Assembly: GCA_030684555.1 (NCBI GenBank)
Contig: JAUXVN010000013.1
Span: 124,001 to 188,000, forward strand
Origin: Ignavibacteria bacterium
Lineage (GTDB): Bacteria; Bacteroidota; Ignavibacteria; Ignavibacteriales; Ignavibacteriaceae
Direction: 5' to 3'
Length of the DNA stretch: 64,000 bases
Position numbers and translations under genes: made by a program. Under the pieces are notes generated by a model, which was not told where the DNA came from, ran no database searches, and saw only the letters and a list, made by a program, of their open reading frames with translations. Positions 36,457-58,936 of the stretch are shown here, in pieces. How positions within the stretch are numbered: position 1 is the first letter of the stretch; the number at the start of each line of letters is the position of its first letter.

Positions 36457-36705
36457 ATGAAAACCATAATAGCAAAAATCAGCAATCCTTTAAACGAATT
36501 AATAAGTGATGATATATATGACTTATTAAATTCACATGGATTAATCGACGAAAAATCTGTCCGCGATTACCAGATTAGAAAAAAGTTTAAAGCATTGCGA
36601 TCAAGCAAGACCAGTGCCGGTGATGCAATTGATGCGATAAGAGAAGAGTATCCATATTTGCAATTTGATACCATCCGCAAGATTGTATATCAAATAAGTA
36701 AATAA
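36457..36705 (+). CDS. Small conserved-looking protein, unknown function
   Basis: An 82-residue protein from ATG 36457, chosen because AAAGGG lies 7 bases upstream (36444-36449). The frame is open further up to a GTG at 36382, which has no spaced ribosome-binding site. The product is helical and basic: MKTIIAKISNPLNELISDD, then RDYQIRKKFKALRSS, AGDAIDAIREEYPYLQFDTIRKIVYQ. The second half looks like a short helix-turn-helix or nucleic-acid-binding fold. It lies between two structured RNA candidates. No family name can be given from sequence reading. Confidence 0.65.
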   Translation: MKTIIAKISNPLNELISDDIYDLLNSHGLIDEKSVRDYQIRKKFKALRSSKTSAGDAIDAIREEYPYLQFDTIRKIVYQISK

Positions 36706-36729
36706 ATTTTTTATATTTTTTGCTGATAC

Positions 36730-36758
36730 TTGACAAATAGTATCGGTTCGTTTATATT
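36730..36758 (+). promoter_or_regulatory. Sigma-70-type promoter for the two-hairpin RNA
   Basis: TTGACA (36730-36735), exactly 17 bases, then TATATT (36753-36758): a full -35 consensus and a 5/6 -10. This is the best classical promoter I found in the window. It would start transcription near 36765, immediately before two hairpins and a terminator. Confidence 0.7.
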
Positions 36759-36763
36759 TCCAT

Positions 36764-36840
36764 TGTCTTTCTCGTAGGTTTCTCCCCTGGCCTACGAGAT
36801 ATAACAGACAGCCCAGTGTTTCCCCCAGCACTGGGTTTTT
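36764..36840 (+). ncRNA. Candidate two-hairpin small RNA with C-rich loops
   Basis: About 75 bases following a strong promoter. Hairpin 1: CTCGTAGG (36771-36778) pairs with CCTACGAG (36791-36798), with loop TTTCTCCCCTGG. Hairpin 2: CCCAGTG (36812-36818) pairs with CACTGGG (36829-36835), with loop TTTCCCCCAG, followed by TTTTT. Both loops share a TTTCnCCCC-type core. C-rich single-stranded loops in bacterial small RNAs usually pair with Shine-Dalgarno sequences. It ends 20 bases before the next ATG, so it could instead be a terminating leader of 36861-37133. Confidence 0.6.
36812..36840 (+). terminator. Rho-independent terminator
   Basis: A 7-bp perfect stem (CCCAGTG / CACTGGG), a 10-base loop and a T5 tract. 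It serves as the 3' end of the small-RNA candidate and probably also of the 36457-36705 gene. Confidence 0.8.
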
Positions 36841-36860
36841 ATTTTATTAACGGAGTATAC

Positions 36861-37133
36861 ATGGCAGCTAAAGTAAAAAAAACAACGAGAATTGTAAAGA
36901 AACAAACTATTTCCCCGTTCAAAATATATTGGGAGAAAAAAAACTATATCCTTTTATTAGTAGGGATTTTAGTTAGTATTATCGGTTATTATCTGCTTTC
37001 TGTTGGTACATGGGATAGTACAGAATCACTAATTATTTCTCCGATTCTACTTTTCATAGCCTACTTGATTATTTTTCCACTTTCAATATTTTTTAGACCA
37101 AAAGAATCGTCAAATACTTCTCAGGAAGGATAA
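36861..37133 (+). CDS. DUF3098-like membrane protein
   Basis: A 90-residue protein with a lysine-rich N-terminus (MAAKVKKTTRIVKK) and two membrane helices: YILLLVGILVSIIGYYLLSVG and a second around ISPILLFIAYLIIFPLSIFF. This is the layout of the DUF3098 family of Bacteroidota-like bacteria; function unknown. I start at 36861, with CGGAG 6 bases upstream, not at the in-frame codon at 36816, which lies inside the terminator hairpin. It is followed after 3 bases by a EutN-family gene. Confidence 0.8.
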   Translation: MAAKVKKTTRIVKKQTISPFKIYWEKKNYILLLVGILVSIIGYYLLSVGTWDSTESLIISPILLFIAYLIIFPLSIFFRPKESSNTSQEG

Positions 37134-37136
37134 GCG

Positions 37137-37418
37137 ATGCTTTTAGCTAAAGTTAAGGGGAATGTTGTTTCTACTCAGAAGAACAGTGAATTAAAAGGAC
37201 ACAAACTTCTGATTGTGAATGAAATTGATCTTCAAGGTAATTTCAAAAACAAACAGGATGTAATTGCGATTGACCTCATTGATTCAGGAATTGGAGACAC
37301 AGTTCTCGTCACCCAGGAGGGAGATGCTGTTCAACAAATTTTAGGACATAAAAAAGCCCCGGTTCATTCCATTATTGTTGCTAACGTAGATAAACTTGAC
37401 ATTCCCAATAACAAATAG
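37137..37418 (+). CDS. EutN/CcmL family microcompartment vertex protein
   Basis: A 93-residue pentamer-forming BMC vertex (BMC-P) protein: MLLAKVKGNVVSTQKNSEL, KGHKLLIVNEIDLQG, VIAIDLIDSGIGDTVLVTQEGDAVQQILG, then HSIIVANVDKLDI. These are the family's usual blocks. In microcompartments such proteins cap the vertices of the shell. No hexameric shell protein or microcompartment enzyme lies beside it: its neighbours are a DUF3098-like gene and dprA. It may be a lone homologue with another job. Confidence 0.88.
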   Translation: MLLAKVKGNVVSTQKNSELKGHKLLIVNEIDLQGNFKNKQDVIAIDLIDSGIGDTVLVTQEGDAVQQILGHKKAPVHSIIVANVDKLDIPNNK

Positions 37419-37427
37419 CTTTCAAAC

Positions 37428-38549
37428 GTGTCAAAATTAAGTTTTGATCAACTTGTCAATCTTCAACTCCTCCTTTCAATTGAAGGAATTGGGCCAATCA
37501 AAATTAAAAATCTATTGATCAAATTGAAAAAGTTCGAGAATGTAATAAATTCAGATTACCGAACTTTATCGAGTGTTGAAGGTATCGGTCCAAATTTGGC
37601 AAAAAGGATTGTTAAAGCAAAACAGAATAGAAGTGAGATCGAAAACTTATTTAATGAGAAACTGAACAAACTTCATAAAATGAATGGAAGAATTTTGACG
37701 ATCTGGGATTCAGATTATCCTCAAATTCTAAAAAAAATTTATGACCCTCCGTTATTACTTTACATCAAAGGAAATTTTGAAGAATCGGATAAATATTCCA
37801 TCGCAATAGTCGGAACAAGAAATCCTACAAACTATGGTAAAATTCAAGCTGAAAATTTTGCATCTTCATTGGTTGAACAAAAAGTTACCGTTGTTAGCGG
37901 ATTAGCCCGCGGAATCGATTCAGCAGCTCACAGCGGAGCTCTTAAAAATAATGGCCGAACTATTGCGATATTAGGTAATGGATTAGATATTATTTACCCT
38001 CCCGAGAATAGAAAACTTAGAGATGAGATATCCGAAAAAGGAATTTTGATTTCAGAAAATGAAATAGGAACTAAACCGGACGCGCAAAATTTTCCCAGAA
38101 GAAATAGAATAATTTCCGGGCTTAGTCTTGGAACACTTGTTATAGAATCAGGAGCATCCGGAGGGGCAATGCAAACTGCTGCCTTTGCCCTGGATCAGAA
38201 TAGAGAGGTTTTTGCAATCCCGGGTAATATTGGATTAACACAATCCGAAGGAACCAATCTTTTAATTCAAAAGGGAGAAGCAAAATTAGTTCTAAATGTT
38301 GAAGATATTTTCAGTGAGTTAGAATTAAAACTCAAACCTGTTATCGGCGAACATCACACCAAGAGACCTATTGATTTAAATATGTTTGAAGCAAAAATTT
38401 ATGATGTAATAAGTAATGAACCACAACATATTGACAAAATCTCTCAATTAAGTAATTTATCATCATCAGATAGTTTAGTGCATCTTTTATCTTTAGAGTT
38501 TCGAGGGCTTATTAAGCAGTTAGCGGGGAAAATGTTTATTAAAACTTAG
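37428..38549 (+). CDS. dprA: DNA-processing protein DprA
   Basis: Binds incoming single-stranded DNA during natural transformation and loads RecA. A helix-hairpin-helix region (LSIEGIGPIKIKNLL and VEGIGPNLAKRI, residues 15-65) precedes the Rossmann-like core: AIVGTRNPTNYG, VSGLARGIDSAAHSGAL, GNGLDIIYPPEN, FPRRNRIISGLS, ESGASGGAMQTAAFALDQ, FAIPGNIG. A C-terminal winged-helix-like domain follows. It begins with GTG at 37428. The last 4 bases overlap the stop of convergent rarA. Confidence 0.97.
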   Translation: MSKLSFDQLVNLQLLLSIEGIGPIKIKNLLIKLKKFENVINSDYRTLSSVEGIGPNLAKRIVKAKQNRSEIENLFNEKLNKLHKMNGRILTIWDSDYPQILKKIYDPPLLLYIKGNFEESDKYSIAIVGTRNPTNYGKIQAENFASSLVEQKVTVVSGLARGIDSAAHSGALKNNGRTIAILGNGLDIIYPPENRKLRDEISEKGILISENEIGTKPDAQNFPRRNRIISGLSLGTLVIESGASGGAMQTAAFALDQNREVFAIPGNIGLTQSEGTNLLIQKGEAKLVLNVEDIFSELELKLKPVIGEHHTKRPIDLNMFEAKIYDVISNEPQHIDKISQLSNLSSSDSLVHLLSLEFRGLIKQLAGKMFIKT

Positions 38550-53312: not shown

Positions 53313-54446
53313 CTATCGCTTTACTTTTTTACCCGGAATAAATGCCGGATAAGTATAATCATCGTGGCAGCTTGAACATTCGGGTTTAGCGTAAGTTGGA
53401 TTTGTATGACAACTTTCACAATCAAACTCTAAGTGAATTTCATCCAATACTAATCCGGTAACTTTGTGATTGAATTTTTCTTTGGTCCAAGTACCATGAC
53501 ATGTATTACAATTTTTATTCAATCCGGTAAACTTACCCGGTGTTGTATGACATCTTACACAACTTAATTTGGAGTGATAACTGTTTAGATTAAATCCGGT
53601 TGATATGAGATGGTTGAAACCATTCGTCTCTTTATCATTATGACAAGTTACGCAATTACTTTTTACCTTTGTATCGTGACATGAGCTGCATGCTTTATGT
53701 TTGAGTTCAACACTCATTTTTGGTTTTGCTGATGCGGGACGTTGATCGTGACACTTTACACAACCGTCATTTGAATGGCAAGATTGACAATCGAGTCCGA
53801 ATAAATCTATATGTTCTTTATGGAAGAAGACTACAGTTTTACCTTCAGCTTTAGGTGTTTTATATGTGATTTTTTCAGGAGTCTCAAGTTTAGCATGACT
53901 CTTCTTAATTGTTCCTGTTATAAGTTTTTCTTTCGAAGGAGATTTTGTATTTAATTGATGACAAGCAGAACATTCAACTCCACCACTCCACTCACGATGA
54001 CAATCCATACATTGTCTATGATAAGCACCTTTTAAATCGGGTCGATTAACATCTTCACGTTTGCGCGATGAATTATGGCAGTTATCGCAACCAATGATTT
54101 TTCCCGGTGGATTATAATGATGACAGGTTACACAACCACCTGACATTTCGGACATTTCTGCATGAAGTCGATGACTAAAAGTGACTTCTTTATAAATATC
54201 CTGATTACCTTTTAGTTTATTGATTACAATAATATCAGGACCTTCTTCAGGTTTTTGTTTGGTTGTAGCAATTGACTCGCGTGGACAATCACGTAAGCAT
54301 GGGTTTTCTTTTGTAGGAATACTGCATGAATGGCAATTTTCACAAATCAATGCTTTTTGACTATGGGAAGTCCCCATTTTTTTTACTTGACCGTTTACAT
54401 TAGTAAGTAATACTAAAGTAATTATAAATAAAAATATTTTTTTCAT
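53313..54446 (-). CDS. Multiheme c-type cytochrome, 13 CxxCH motifs
   Basis: A 377-residue periplasmic protein with a signal peptide (MKKIFLFIITLVLLTNVNGQ) and thirteen CxxCH heme sites: CENCH, CVTCH, CDNCH, CMDCH, CSACH, CQSCH, CVKCH, CSSCH, CVTCH, CVRCH, CNTCH, CESCH, CSSCH. Many free His-bearing segments (FSHRLHAEM, FFHKEHIDL, YHSKL) give bis-His ligation of cytochrome c3 type. An additional CX4C pair near 49-54 (CLRDC) has no His. It overlaps the membrane subunit gene by 4 bases (ATGA). It probably takes electrons from the HybB-like protein and carries them in the periplasm; the terminal acceptor is unknown. Confidence 0.93.
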   Translation of the reverse strand: MKKIFLFIITLVLLTNVNGQVKKMGTSHSQKALICENCHSCSIPTKENPCLRDCPRESIATTKQKPEEGPDIIVINKLKGNQDIYKEVTFSHRLHAEMSEMSGGCVTCHHYNPPGKIIGCDNCHNSSRKREDVNRPDLKGAYHRQCMDCHREWSGGVECSACHQLNTKSPSKEKLITGTIKKSHAKLETPEKITYKTPKAEGKTVVFFHKEHIDLFGLDCQSCHSNDGCVKCHDQRPASAKPKMSVELKHKACSSCHDTKVKSNCVTCHNDKETNGFNHLISTGFNLNSYHSKLSCVRCHTTPGKFTGLNKNCNTCHGTWTKEKFNHKVTGLVLDEIHLEFDCESCHTNPTYAKPECSSCHDDYTYPAFIPGKKVKR

Positions 54447-55684
54447 CTGAATAAACCTTTTACTGCATATTTCGTTTTAAAAGCGACTTTTTGCGGAACA
54501 CTAACAATCGGGAATATCATAACGAATATTCTAAAAAGTAAAATTTCTAACGCGATGAATCCGAGTGTTACCGAAAATTCCCCAACCGATGGGAAGTAGG
54601 AACTTTCAGCATATGGTGGAGTGTACGCAACTATAAAATTGTTTAATCGATTCATCAATACACCGATAATAACAAACGCCGATGCCCAGAAAAGACCTTC
54701 AGGAGTTTTTGAGATTTTTCTGGAGAAAAACATCCTCAATGGAATTACGATACCAATCATAACTTCCAATGTGAACATTATACTCTCGGTATTTATTACC
54801 ATTAGATGAACATATGTCTGACGAATAACTACATCAACAATTTTTGCAGTTAGATAAATTAATAACATTGGTCCAACCATTCTGCCTAAACCTTCGAGAA
54901 CGTCAAGTTCAGGTTTTAATCCGAATGATTTCGAGCTTATAAGTGATTCAAAAATTACCATCGGGAAACCGACACAAATTGCAGAAAGTAAGAATAAAAG
55001 AGGCAGTATCGGAGTTTGCCACAATGGGTGCATTTTTTCACCCGCAATAACCATCAATGTTCCCAATGATGATTGATGCAAACAAGAAAGAACAACTCCG
55101 GATATAATGAAAATGAACATTGTTTTTTCTAATGTTCTATCCAATACACGTAAAAGTTTATCGATAATATTATTGAACTTTCTCAAGAAGCCGGGCAAAT
55201 CAACTCTTCCAATAAATCTTTCTGTTACAATCGGTAGAAATTCAATATAAAGCACTGTAAGATAAATCATTACGCATATGCCAACCTCAAAAAGTACAGA
55301 AGTACCATTCCACATGACAAGAGGATGCCATATATAGTGATAACGCCCTAAATCAATCATCACACTCATAGCTACAAAAGTATAACCAAGCATTGCAGTT
55401 AATAAAGCAGGACGAATTATAACTTCATATTTATCTTTATGCATTATATGACCGAGTGCTGCGGTGGTAAAACCGCCGGCGGCGAGGGCAACACCTGCAG
55501 CTACATCAATTCCAATCCAAATTCCCCACGGAAATTGGTCATTCAAATTAGTAACCGCACCGAGTCCAAAAACAAATCTTCCGAGAAGAAATACTAAGCC
55601 ATTAATGGCTACTGCCGAGATTAATATCACTAATGGAGTAAAAAATTTCTTTTGAATAGGAGTAGGTTTGAAAAAATGTTCCAT
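54443..55684 (-). CDS. HybB/NrfD-type quinol-interacting membrane subunit
   Basis: A 413-residue integral membrane protein with about ten helices. The opening FFKPTPIQKKFFTPLV and FPWGIWIGIDVAAGVALAAGGFTTAAL, plus MIDLGRYHYIWHPLVMWN, follow the HybB/PsrC (NrfD) family, which exchanges electrons with menaquinol without cofactors of its own. It is encoded with a HybA-like ferredoxin (2-base gap) and the 13-heme cytochrome (4-base overlap). A three-part quinol:cytochrome complex is likely. Confidence 0.93.
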   Translation of the reverse strand: MEHFFKPTPIQKKFFTPLVILISAVAINGLVFLLGRFVFGLGAVTNLNDQFPWGIWIGIDVAAGVALAAGGFTTAALGHIMHKDKYEVIIRPALLTAMLGYTFVAMSVMIDLGRYHYIWHPLVMWNGTSVLFEVGICVMIYLTVLYIEFLPIVTERFIGRVDLPGFLRKFNNIIDKLLRVLDRTLEKTMFIFIISGVVLSCLHQSSLGTLMVIAGEKMHPLWQTPILPLLFLLSAICVGFPMVIFESLISSKSFGLKPELDVLEGLGRMVGPMLLIYLTAKIVDVVIRQTYVHLMVINTESIMFTLEVMIGIVIPLRMFFSRKISKTPEGLFWASAFVIIGVLMNRLNNFIVAYTPPYAESSYFPSVGEFSVTLGFIALEILLFRIFVMIFPIVSVPQKVAFKTKYAVKGLFR

Positions 55685-55686
55685 GT

Positions 55687-56592
55687 TTATTCATCCTCCC
55701 CATGTTCAGTTTGCTTACGATTTTTGTTTAGCCACATAACTCCCCCTAACAAAGCATAAATTGCAATGGGTGGAATGAAGTATGCGAATATTCCATGCTG
55801 AATAGCTTCGGTAACACCGGGCGCAGGGTTTTTACCTAATTTTGGAAAATCAATTTGAGTAAACTCTTTACTTGATAGATACATCCATGATGTACCTCCA
55901 ACTTCATGTTCACCCAAAATATGATCAACATATCTTTCGGGATATAATCTTATTTTTTCCTTTGCTGCTCTTAACAGATCTGATTTTTTTCCATAAGTTA
56001 AAACTTCCATCGGACAAATTTCTACGCAAGCCGGTAATTCCCCTTTTTTTGTTCGATCAAAACAGAAGTCACATTTCTTAATATCAGGACTCCATGCTTT
56101 ATCAAATTCAAATGCCGGAATTTGGAAAGGACATGCAACCATGCAATACCTGCAACCGATACATTTATCACCATTCCACAGAACAGTTCCGTTTTCTTCT
56201 TTAGAAAAGGCTCCGACAATACAGGCTGATAAACAAGCAGGGTGATCACAATGCATACATTGAACTTTTACATCAATTGGAAATTTACCATTGGGGTTTT
56301 CGAATTCATTTACGACTGTTAACGCATTTGCATTCGGTCTTCTTCTTTTTTCGAATACTGTGCGGTCATCATATTTTTCAATTGGTTCGGTTGGCATGTT
56401 ATGAGATGTTTTACAAGCCCATTCACATTTCCTGCATCCAATACAGACTGTTGTATCAACAAGTACACCCATTCTGTCATCAGATAGAATATTCTTCGGA
56501 GCACCTTTTACGGTTTTCGTTGAAGCGACTCCTGCAATCGATGCCCCCATGAAAGCAGAAGTTTTTAAGAAGTTACGACGGGATTTATTCAT
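55687..56592 (-). CDS. Tat-exported HybA-like four-cluster ferredoxin
   Basis: A 301-residue iron-sulfur protein with a twin-arginine signal (SRRNFLKTSAFMGAS) and 16 cysteines for four [4Fe-4S] clusters: CIGCRKCEWAC, CMHCDHPACLSAC, CIGCRYCMVAC, CDFCFDRTKKGELPACVEIC. A C-terminal membrane helix (about 268-286, IFAYFIPPIAIYALLGGVMW) anchors it, as in HybA. It passes electrons between a quinol-linked HybB-type protein and the multiheme cytochrome. It is the first gene of the operon. GGGGAGAA (56604-56597) serves as ribosome-binding site. Confidence 0.95.
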   Translation of the reverse strand: MNKSRRNFLKTSAFMGASIAGVASTKTVKGAPKNILSDDRMGVLVDTTVCIGCRKCEWACKTSHNMPTEPIEKYDDRTVFEKRRRPNANALTVVNEFENPNGKFPIDVKVQCMHCDHPACLSACIVGAFSKEENGTVLWNGDKCIGCRYCMVACPFQIPAFEFDKAWSPDIKKCDFCFDRTKKGELPACVEICPMEVLTYGKKSDLLRAAKEKIRLYPERYVDHILGEHEVGGTSWMYLSSKEFTQIDFPKLGKNPAPGVTEAIQHGIFAYFIPPIAIYALLGGVMWLNKNRKQTEHGEDE

Positions 56593-56665
56593 CCTGTTCT
56601 CCCCTATATTATTATCAAAAGATAGTCAATAACTATTTTCAGCAAATAATTTAAAAAATCCTTAT

Positions 56666-56696
56666 CAAAATTATTCCCTTTTGAGAGTAAAGTCAA
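56666..56696 (-). promoter_or_regulatory. Promoter of the HybA-HybB-13-heme-kinase operon
   Basis: On the minus strand TTGACT (56696-56691), 17 bases, then TAATTTTG (56673-56666). This fits both sigma-70 spacing and the Bacteroidota TAnnTTTG -7 element. It lies about 75 bases upstream of the ATG. Confidence 0.6.
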
Positions 56697-56725
56697 CTAA
56701 AATTAAACAGTTTTAAGAATGAGTT

Positions 56726-56768
56726 GTTGAATTTTTCAACTAATTTAACTTTAAAAGTAGTTAAGTTG
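56726..56768. repeat. Inverted repeats upstream of the HybA operon promoter
   Basis: A perfect GTTGAA-TTT-TTCAAC palindrome at 56726-56740 is followed by a looser 32-base inverted repeat (CAACT ... AGTTG) at 56737-56768. Both lie 30 to 75 bases upstream of the -35 element, so they are candidate activator sites. The TTG-N7-CAA spacing is one base short of FNR/HcpR-type boxes, so no family is assigned. Confidence 0.4.
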
Positions 56769-56786
56769 AAGAAGTGGGGAAAAAGA

Positions 56787-56816
56787 GAGGCTCATAGTAA
56801 TACTGCTAAGAGCCTC
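56787..56816 (-). terminator. Terminator after nrfA
   Basis: A GAGGCTC/GAGCCTC stem, extended inward by TAGTA/TGCTA with one G-T pair, then TCTTTTT on the minus strand. It lies 12 bases past the nrfA stop. Confidence 0.85.
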
Positions 56817-56828
56817 ATAAAAATTAAT

Positions 56829-58304
56829 CTAATTACTCATTTTAGATTGACGCTCGGCTGCCTTTTTATCCCATTGAGTTGGAGTTGTTGAAAGGAATAT
56901 TTTCTTTTGAGCATTAAGTTTTTCCATATCAAGTCCAATATACTTTTGGGCTTTTTCTTTAGTTGAGATGTCAGGCATAGCAATTGGAGTTTGAACTCCA
57001 AGATTTGTCAACAACTTAGAAAGTTCTACACGGGCTTCCTCAGCTTTTCTAATTGAAGTTGCTAATATCCTTGCACTTTCTAATGGTGCATGAAATGATC
57101 CTCCATGACTCGCTGCAACATAATCCCATCTCCATTGAGCATGGCGAATATTTGTTAAAATAGATTTCATCTCTTCTTCTTTTGCCCCTTTATCCCATGC
57201 AGTTTTAGCTTCAATATGTGCTTTGACAATTGAATGTTCAGCTAATAACAGAAGCTCTTTAACTTTATCTTGTCGTTCGTAAACATTGTTCAATAAAGTT
57301 TCTTCACTTTCACGGTGACAAACCTGGCAGGATCGAGAAATATTATTCAATGGGCTTTGAATATGATGGTCGGTAAACTTAACCCCACCTTCACTCTTAT
57401 AAGGCATATGACAGTCTGCACAAGCAACTCCCCGTTGAGCATGAATACCAAATTGAGCCATCTCCCAATCAGGATGTTGTGCTTTAAGTACCGGTGTTTT
57501 GCTCAAAGTATGAACAAAGTCAACGTGTTCAATTTCATCATAATACTTTTCCATTTCCTCTACACTTATCCCGCCATCCCACGGAAATGTTAAATATTTT
57601 TCAGTCTTCCCTTTGAAATAATATTCTACATGGCACTGTGCACAAACAAGTGAGCGCATATCTTGATGTGAGGATTTTGTAATATCTTTTCCCTGGCGTT
57701 CAAAGGCTTCAATTAAAGCCGGTCGGGTAATTCTCAAATTCATTGTTTTAGGATCATGACAGTCTTGACAACCGATTGCATTCACGACTTCATCACCTAA
57801 TTCATTCCAACTTTTTTTATAAAAATCTGAGACACCCATTTCATTCATTAATCTTGGGACATCTGTACTTTTACACGTCCAGCAAGTTGCGGGTTGAGGA
57901 ACATCAGTTCGTAAAGTATTTCTAATATCTTTTATTGCGTAATAATGCCCACGTCCTTGATTATAATCCCGCGAGAAAGCGTAACCTGCCCACAGGACAA
58001 CCAAATTTGGTTCTCGTTGCAACATATCAACCATGCCACTTCCGCCATATTTACTGACAAATGTAGTATCAAGTGTTTTTATATATGACTCAAATTGACG
58101 ATTAAAATTTTCACCCCAAACTTCATTTCGCGGTTCCCACTCTGCAATTGGTGTTACTAATTGAAATCGTTGAATTGCTTCACTTCTTCTTTCAACTATT
58201 GAAGCACCAAATAAGCCGATAAAAAATACTACCACCACCGTCGAAAGGAAAAGTCCCCAGGCAATTAATGGTTTTTCTGTTATTAACTGTTGAATTTTTT
58301 TCAT
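56829..58304 (-). CDS. nrfA: Ammonia-forming cytochrome c nitrite reductase
   Basis: Reduces nitrite to ammonium with six electrons in the periplasm. A 491-residue pentaheme enzyme: the catalytic heme motif is CWTCK (141-145) and the others are CQDCH (179-183), CAQCH (221-225), CADCH (295-299) and CQVCH (326-330). The active-site His is H288 (GIHAQRG), and the calcium-site region VEYYFKGKTEKYLTFPWDGG follows heme 3. An uncleaved-looking N-terminal hydrophobic segment (12-33) may be a signal-anchor. It lies 17 bases downstream of nrfH, which feeds it from the quinol pool. Confidence 0.98.
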   Translation of the reverse strand: MKKIQQLITEKPLIAWGLFLSTVVVVFFIGLFGASIVERRSEAIQRFQLVTPIAEWEPRNEVWGENFNRQFESYIKTLDTTFVSKYGGSGMVDMLQREPNLVVLWAGYAFSRDYNQGRGHYYAIKDIRNTLRTDVPQPATCWTCKSTDVPRLMNEMGVSDFYKKSWNELGDEVVNAIGCQDCHDPKTMNLRITRPALIEAFERQGKDITKSSHQDMRSLVCAQCHVEYYFKGKTEKYLTFPWDGGISVEEMEKYYDEIEHVDFVHTLSKTPVLKAQHPDWEMAQFGIHAQRGVACADCHMPYKSEGGVKFTDHHIQSPLNNISRSCQVCHRESEETLLNNVYERQDKVKELLLLAEHSIVKAHIEAKTAWDKGAKEEEMKSILTNIRHAQWRWDYVAASHGGSFHAPLESARILATSIRKAEEARVELSKLLTNLGVQTPIAMPDISTKEKAQKYIGLDMEKLNAQKKIFLSTTPTQWDKKAAERQSKMSN

Positions 58305-58321
58305 GTCTTACCTGATTATTA

Positions 58322-58936
58322 TTATTTATTTGATTTTTCTAATTCTAAATATTTTTGTAACCATTCAGGGGTTACTGGTGTTAATTGCGGAACACGTGCA
58401 AAAGGAAATGAGGAGAGACTACTAACTCTTCCGTGCGGAGTTTCTCTATGGCAATCCCAGCATAACTTTTCTCCTCCATGTCTTGCGGCTGAACCTGTTA
58501 CTGAAACAACTGATGCCATGTTAACATACTCATAATGACATCTTATACAATTTTCCTGGACTACACTTTTACCCGCTTCTTTAATACGTATCACTTCCGG
58601 TTCTAAACGAAAAGTAAACATTGTAGCATGCCGCAAACCATCGCTGGCTTTAAAATAATAAGTGCGGATAAAATTGTCTTGAGGGACATGACAGGCTGTG
58701 CAAGTTGCCACTCTTGCATGACTACTTTTTTGCCATGATGCAAATTGTGGTGTCATAACATGACAATTCATGCACGTTAGCGGATCGTTTGATAAATATG
58801 AACTTGCATTTGATATGTGGAAAATCACTATTAACATTCCCACCAAAACCCCTAATACTATAATAACCTGTATTCTCCATTGAGGAGGTGGAAAAAGAAA
58901 CCGAACTTTATCAAATATTTTCATAGATTTTTTCAT
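58322..58936 (-). CDS. nrfH: Cytochrome c nitrite reductase small subunit (NapC/NirT family)
   Basis: Tetraheme quinol dehydrogenase of 204 residues anchored by one N-terminal helix (22-43). The heme motifs are CMNCH, CTACH, CIRCH and CWDCH. The methionine after heme 1 (CMNCHVM) is the axial ligand seen in NrfH. It reduces NrfA. It is a little longer than classical NrfH (about 150-170 residues), owing to a C-terminal tail (RVSSLSSF to SNK). It lies 11 bases downstream of the hemerythrin gene. Confidence 0.96.
   Translation of the reverse strand: MKKSMKIFDKVRFLFPPPQWRIQVIIVLGVLVGMLIVIFHISNASSYLSNDPLTCMNCHVMTPQFASWQKSSHARVATCTACHVPQDNFIRTYYFKASDGLRHATMFTFRLEPEVIRIKEAGKSVVQENCIRCHYEYVNMASVVSVTGSAARHGGEKLCWDCHRETPHGRVSSLSSFPFARVPQLTPVTPEWLQKYLELEKSNK

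What the first reader, a model, noticed from the sequence alone, without database searches (positions are those of the whole stretch)
36730..36840. Compact small-RNA locus: strong promoter, two hairpins with near-identical C-rich loops, terminator
TTGACA-N17-TATATT is followed within 15 bases by two stem-loops whose loops share TTTCnCCCC, then T5. The stems differ in sequence while the loops agree, which is what selection on the loops would give. C-rich loops typically block Shine-Dalgarno sites.
Basis: partly seen in the sequence, partly recalled or inferred. Interest (0 to 1): 0.6.

Follow-up and report, generated by a model that had tools for sequence, protein, structure and literature searches.

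The report
Class-wide Ignavibacteria small RNA
A short stretch between two genes encodes a small regulatory RNA, about 75 bases long, that is conserved across many Ignavibacteria families; its hairpin stems mutate while its C-rich loops stay fixed, which suggests that the loops grab the ribosome-binding sites of other messages, although no target has been shown.

Summary
Window 36730-36844 (+) carries TTGACA-N17-TATATT, an 11-bp and a 10-bp hairpin with C-rich loops, and a T5 tail; the RNA folds 8 s.d. better than shuffles. It is a real RNA family with no Rfam match at gathering score. Homologues occur in every Ignavibacteriaceae-type genome drawn by the covariance search (40/40) and in at least ten families of the class (147/391 genomes), in 1-8 copies per genome. 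The stems show strong compensatory change (17 of 24 pairs; 162 cells against 54 shuffled), while the first loop (UCUCCCCU) is almost invariant and the promoter sits at a fixed distance in most of 94 copies. The best sub-threshold Rfam hits are ar14 and anti-hemB, both small RNAs with C-rich loops. The main copy sits directly 5' of a DUF3098 membrane-protein gene in nine families, but about 30 other copies do not, so it is not merely a leader. The most likely function is an Hfq-independent, trans-acting RNA whose C-rich loops pair with purine-rich Shine-Dalgarno sites, like alphaproteobacterial ar14/cuckoo RNAs. Structure, transcription signals, loop selection and distribution rest on computed evidence; targets are not shown, and two attractive candidates failed conservation tests.

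The parts
36730..36735 (+). -35 box TTGACA
   Evidence: exact TTGACA in 58 of 94 homologous copies, all within a 5-base range of positions
36753..36758 (+). -10 box TATATT, spacer 17
   Evidence: 87% of 94 copies score 9/12 or more against 24% of shuffles; 78% against 3% at 10/12
36765..36841 (+). predicted small RNA, about 77 nt (start inferred 7 nt after the -10 box, end inferred in the T run)
   Evidence: ends inferred, not measured
36765..36768 (+). outer clamp helix, 5' strand (GUCU)
   Evidence: pairs with 36806-36809; all 5 alignment pairs of this helix show changes on both sides, 81.5% of cells paired
36806..36809 (+). outer clamp helix, 3' strand (AGAC)
36770..36799 (+). hairpin 1, 11-bp stem; loop 36781-36788 UCUCCCCU
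   Evidence: 9 of 11 pairs with compensatory changes; 96.8% of cells paired; loop near-invariant
36811..36836 (+). hairpin 2 and intrinsic terminator; loop 36821-36826 UCCCCC
   Evidence: 99% of cells paired
36836..36844 (+). U-rich terminator tail (T5, A, then T-rich)
   Evidence: T tail mostly 89-97% conserved
36861..37133 (+). DUF3098-like small membrane protein gene, start codon about 20 nt after the terminator; constant neighbour of the main copy
   Evidence: PF11297 at E 4.6e-5, 23.3 bits against a cut-off of 25; several orthologues in other families pass the cut-off; linked in 66 copies of 9 families
36457..36705 (+). conserved 82-aa protein gene upstream; neighbour only in families f1-f3, not an obligate partner

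Best explanation
An independently promoted, intrinsically terminated small RNA of about 77 nt, belonging to a family spread over the class Ignavibacteria. It folds into two hairpins, the first held by a short clamp helix. The C-rich loops (UCUCCCCU and UCCCCC) are presented single-stranded as partly redundant seeds that pair with G-rich translation-initiation regions (GGAG, GGGGAG) of target mRNAs in trans and block ribosome binding, without Hfq. The main copy is also the promoter-proximal, mostly terminated leader of a DUF3098 gene, which would then be expressed by read-through. Steps supported by computation: RNA family, structure, promoter, terminator, loop selection, no detectable Hfq, existence of stand-alone copies. 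Steps inferred: that it is transcribed, trans-pairing, Shine-Dalgarno occlusion, read-through into DUF3098.
For: Fold z -8.4. Homologues in 40/40 drawn genomes of the own family, 147/391 of the class; a pattern scan of 84,980 species genomes hit only Ignavibacteria, Chlorobiaceae-labelled or unspecified Bacteroidetes MAGs. Covariation: 17 of 24 pairs with two-sided change, score 0.504 against 0.206 shuffled and at most 0.096 when slid. Loop core UCCCC invariant or nearly so, where stems are mostly 0.3-0.7 identical. Every one of 102 aligned sequences keeps CCC in at least one hairpin loop, 86 in both. Promoter at fixed distance. About 30 copies unlinked to DUF3098, several facing a convergent gene, so they cannot be leaders. 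Canonical anti-SD CACCTCC in 16S; GGAG in the SD zone of 16% of 365 genes against 1-2% in control zones. No Hfq in 13 genomes. Published parallel: ar14/NfeR1 has ultraconserved CCUCCUCCC in its unpaired regions, stems that differ highly, and silences mRNAs by pairing at the initiation region (PMC10746234).
Against: No target demonstrated. Exact complements of loop 1 (CAGGGGAGAA) in the own genome are not at plausible start codons. The best own-genome candidate, an NrfD-linked ferredoxin gene at window 55687-56592 with AGGGGAGAA before its start, keeps the match only within its genus. A recurrent hit upstream of a radical-SAM gene is explained by the conserved coding end (WKGREY) of the overlapping upstream gene. 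The tight link of the main copy to DUF3098 leaves room for a cis role. The homologues were gathered partly with a model trained on C-rich loops, which biases loop counts upward.
Confidence: 0.6

Rival explanations
1. A cis-acting leader or attenuator of the DUF3098 gene: hairpin 2 terminates transcription unless a signal or protein bound at loop 1 permits read-through.
For: The main copy is directly 5' of a DUF3098-like gene in 9 families, although the upstream gene differs (82-aa gene or LolD-like ABC ATPase); the gap from terminator to start codon, mostly about 7-50 nt, leaves little or no room for another promoter.
Against: About 30 copies in the same group have no DUF3098 downstream, several face convergent genes, yet keep loops and terminator. 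No alternative antiterminator pairing appears in the consensus. A locus without a visible RNA between the 82-aa gene and DUF3098 exists (L361).
Confidence: 0.2
2. A protein-binding RNA: the C-rich loops are recognised by an RNA-binding protein, which the RNA titrates or carries; multiple copies raise the dose.
For: Conserved single-stranded loops on variable stems, multiple tandem copies in some genomes, no Hfq in 13 genomes.
Against: No candidate protein found. The adjacent 82-aa protein has a different distribution: not found in families f5, f7 and f14 that have the RNA, present in f4, f6, f8, f10, f12 and f15, where the RNA model found little or none. The sense strand has no GGA in its loops, so a CsrA-type sponge is unlikely on this strand.
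Confidence: 0.15
3. Two ordinary terminator-like hairpins in tandem with chance loop similarity and no RNA function.
For: Hairpin 2 is a good intrinsic terminator.
Against: Class-wide covariation, loop-1 invariance, fixed promoter, several copies.
Confidence: 0.02

Closest known systems
ar14 / NfeR1 and the cuckoo RNAs of Alphaproteobacteria (Rfam RF02344)
   Same: Hairpins with ultraconserved C-rich anti-SD-like loops on highly variable stems, last hairpin a terminator, redundant seeds; reported to silence mRNAs at the translation start (PMC10746234).
   Different: 23.6 bits against a gathering score of 58.8. ar14 carries CCUCCUCCC in three hairpins; here UCUCCCCU and UCCCCC in two, plus a clamp helix; different phylum; linked to DUF3098.
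anti-hemB (Burkholderia RNA 7, RF02837)
   Same: First hairpin with a UCUCCUCCCUG-type loop, last hairpin a terminator; weak alignment over the whole model.
   Different: 21.0 bits against 49.5; that model has three hairpins and a U-rich terminator loop.
Chlorobi-1 RNA (RF01696)
   Same: Candidate non-coding RNA of the neighbouring group Chlorobi (listed in PMC2864571).
   Different: No Rfam match at gathering score in the window or in eight divergent relatives; not in the permissive list either.
RsaE and other C-rich-motif sRNAs of Gram-positive bacteria (from general knowledge, not tested)
   Same: Unpaired UCCC motifs pairing with Shine-Dalgarno sites.
   Different: Different hosts and architecture; no Rfam match here.

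Membership tests
ar14 (RF02344) | covariance-model score at or above gathering (58.8 bits) | tested here: not met
   23.6 bits, E 0.0072 in a 171-base search
ar14 (RF02344) | CCUCCUCCC aSD motif in the unpaired regions of three hairpins | tested here: not met
   two hairpins with loops UCUCCCCU and UCCCCC
ar14 (RF02344) | stems differ highly while the loop motif is conserved | tested here: met
anti-hemB (RF02837) | covariance-model score at or above gathering (49.5 bits) | tested here: not met
   21.0 bits
Chlorobi-1 (RF01696) | covariance-model match at gathering score | tested here: not met
   no match in the window or relatives
trans-acting, seed-pairing small RNA (functional class) | own promoter and intrinsic terminator | tested here: met
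   sequence only, transcription not measured
trans-acting, seed-pairing small RNA (functional class) | copies at loci where a cis role on a downstream gene is impossible | tested here: met
   about 30 copies unlinked to DUF3098, several followed by convergent genes
trans-acting, seed-pairing small RNA (functional class) | conserved complementarity to mRNA targets | tested here: inconclusive
trans-acting, seed-pairing small RNA (functional class) | expression as a short transcript | not testable with these tools
   needs RNA-seq or Northern blot

The most novel reading that the evidence does not exclude
A class-wide, Hfq-independent sRNA family that works both as a multi-copy trans-acting anti-Shine-Dalgarno RNA and as the terminated leader of a conserved membrane-protein gene (DUF3098), linking translation control to that gene in a group with no described sRNA, and arisen independently of the alphaproteobacterial cuckoo RNAs.
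Probability: 0.3. Interest if true: 0.7.

Novelty: new member of a known kind. Interest (0 to 1): 0.5.

Why it matters
No sRNA paper on Ignavibacteria was found in the library searched and Rfam holds no match to this RNA at gathering score. A conserved, often multi-copy sRNA with near-invariant loops would be a first handle on post-transcriptional control in this class, which lacks detectable Hfq in the genomes tested. It looks like a convergent case of loop-presented anti-SD seeds, and the alignment and covariance model are ready for testing.

Tried and rejected
Rfam search of the window and of eight relatives: nothing relevant at gathering score. Antisense reading as a CsrA-type sponge (GGA in loops on the minus strand): rejected because promoter and T run are on the plus strand. 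Perfect loop-1 complements in the own genome: 8 sites, one being the RNA itself; none at a plausible start codon, one lies inside what looks like nosZ. Ferredoxin/NrfD-like operon at window 54443-56592 as a target: the match is kept only in the same genus. Radical-SAM gene with AGGGGAGAA before its start in several genera: due to the overlapping upstream coding sequence WKGREY. The 82-aa protein as obligate partner: distribution does not match and it lies elsewhere in other families. Phylum hits outside the class lie near the cut-off (E 2.6e-5 to 8e-4) and the one inspected (L142) is not convincing. Hfq: none in 13 genomes, control genomes positive. The paper defining the cuckoo family (PMC4615179) is not held.

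Full report
Check of the observation. The promoter, the two hairpins and the terminator are present at the stated place. The -35 box is TTGACA 36730-36735, the -10 box TATATT 36753-36758. The RNA is predicted to start near 36765 and end near 36841 (inference). Hairpin 1 has an 11-bp stem and loop UCUCCCCU; hairpin 2 has a 10-bp stem and loop UCCCCC, with T5 at its end. The fold is 8.4 s.d. below dinucleotide shuffles. The loops agree as TTTC(n)CCCC, the second being one base shorter.

Neighbourhood. Upstream on the same strand lies an 82-aa protein gene (36457-36705) without a known family; downstream lie a DUF3098-like membrane protein gene (36861-37133), an EutN/CcmL-family protein (37137-37418) and dprA (37428-38549). 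The window has no Rfam match at gathering score and no tRNA.

Homologues. A nucleotide search of 80 genomes of the same family found about 30 with clear matches, several with tandem or dispersed copies. All 30 loci fetched carry CTCCCCTG. 37 sequences were aligned and a covariance model R1 built. R1 found all 40 genomes drawn from the own family, and 147 of 391 genomes of the class in at least ten families, with E down to 1e-28. In the phylum sample 53 of 392 matched; those outside the class lie near the cut-off and are not trusted. A pattern scan of the named species genomes returned 26 contigs, labelled Ignavibacteria, Chlorobiaceae (one) or unspecified Bacteroidetes MAGs. Copy number reaches 8 (G021).

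Structure and selection. On the 37-sequence alignment 94.4% of cells form standard pairs against 79.5% in shuffles, 17 of 24 pairs have two-sided changes, in 162 cells against 54; sliding the partner by 1-3 columns destroys the signal. The loop-1 core is near-invariant (0.99 identity) while the outer stem 1 has 0.46. In the 68-match set including other families the C positions of the loop-1 core stay at 0.96-1.0 where that loop is present, and CCC of the terminator loop at 0.94-0.97. The selection of homologues is partly biased to C-rich loops, but the model also retrieved family f2, in which hairpin 1 has lost its C-rich loop while the terminator loop (UCUCCCCCCAA type) is kept, and a paralogue group with the opposite loss. 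Every aligned sequence keeps CCC in at least one loop (some of the 102 sequences are the same copy cut at slightly different ends). This is what loop seeds with partial redundancy would give.

Transcription signals. In 94 copies a -35/-10 pair scoring 9/12 or more occurs in 87% (shuffles 24%), and 10/12 or more in 78% (3%), mostly ending at the same position; exact TTGACA occurs in 58 copies within a 5-base range. The T tail is conserved.

Genomic context. In nine families the main copy lies directly 5' of a DUF3098-like gene: 66 of 97 copies inspected. The upstream gene changes: the 82-aa gene in f1-f3, a LolD-like ABC ATPase in f5, f7, f14, f22 and f31. The short gap leaves little or no room for a second promoter, so DUF3098 is probably read by escape from the terminator (inference). 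Thirty copies, 27 of them in the own family, have no DUF3098; several face convergent genes. The numbers are not a census: paralogues were chosen on purpose. In one f13 genome the 82-aa gene and DUF3098 are adjacent without a visible RNA.

Mechanism. The 16S rRNA carries the standard anti-SD CACCTCC, and GGAG is enriched about tenfold in the SD zone of 365 own genes (16% against 1-2%), so a C-rich loop can in principle occlude start sites. Hfq was not found in 13 genomes. The comparison with ar14/NfeR1, where loop motifs on variable stems silence mRNAs at initiation regions, is close in logic (PMC10746234). Attempts to name a target failed: perfect loop-1 complements are not at plausible starts, a ferredoxin gene candidate inside the window is conserved only within its genus, and a recurrent radical-SAM hit is a by-product of upstream coding sequence.

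Verdict. A real, class-wide small-RNA family without an Rfam match, most likely a trans-acting anti-SD-type regulator; the regulatory step remains inference.

Noticed in passing
36457-36705 (+): Strongly conserved 82-aa protein of unknown family (core YPYLQFDTIRKIVYQ), in 108 of 197 genomes of the class, sometimes several per genome; in some other families followed by an NAD-synthetase-like gene (judged by eye, not by a family search).
   Followed up: partly
37137-37418 (+): A lone EutN/CcmL-family (microcompartment pentamer) protein between DUF3098 and dprA; an EutN-like gene also lies downstream of DUF3098 in family f2 and in two f3 loci. No other shell gene was looked for.
   Followed up: no
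53313-58936 (-): Cluster of what look by eye like NrfA, NrfH, a ferredoxin, an NrfD-like protein and a multihaem cytochrome; the ferredoxin gene has AGGGGAGAA before its start, complementary to loop 1, a near-match kept only in the same genus.
   Followed up: partly
L137, L144: A second conserved position of the RNA in two genera, beside what looks like an rsmE gene on the opposite strand.
   Followed up: partly
L016, L032, L033: Tandem arrays of two or three copies of the RNA in genera g4 and g9, most with their own promoter-like site.
   Followed up: partly
36722-36747 (+): Inverted repeat GATAC..GTATC overlapping the -35 region, a possible operator; not tested in relatives.
   Followed up: no
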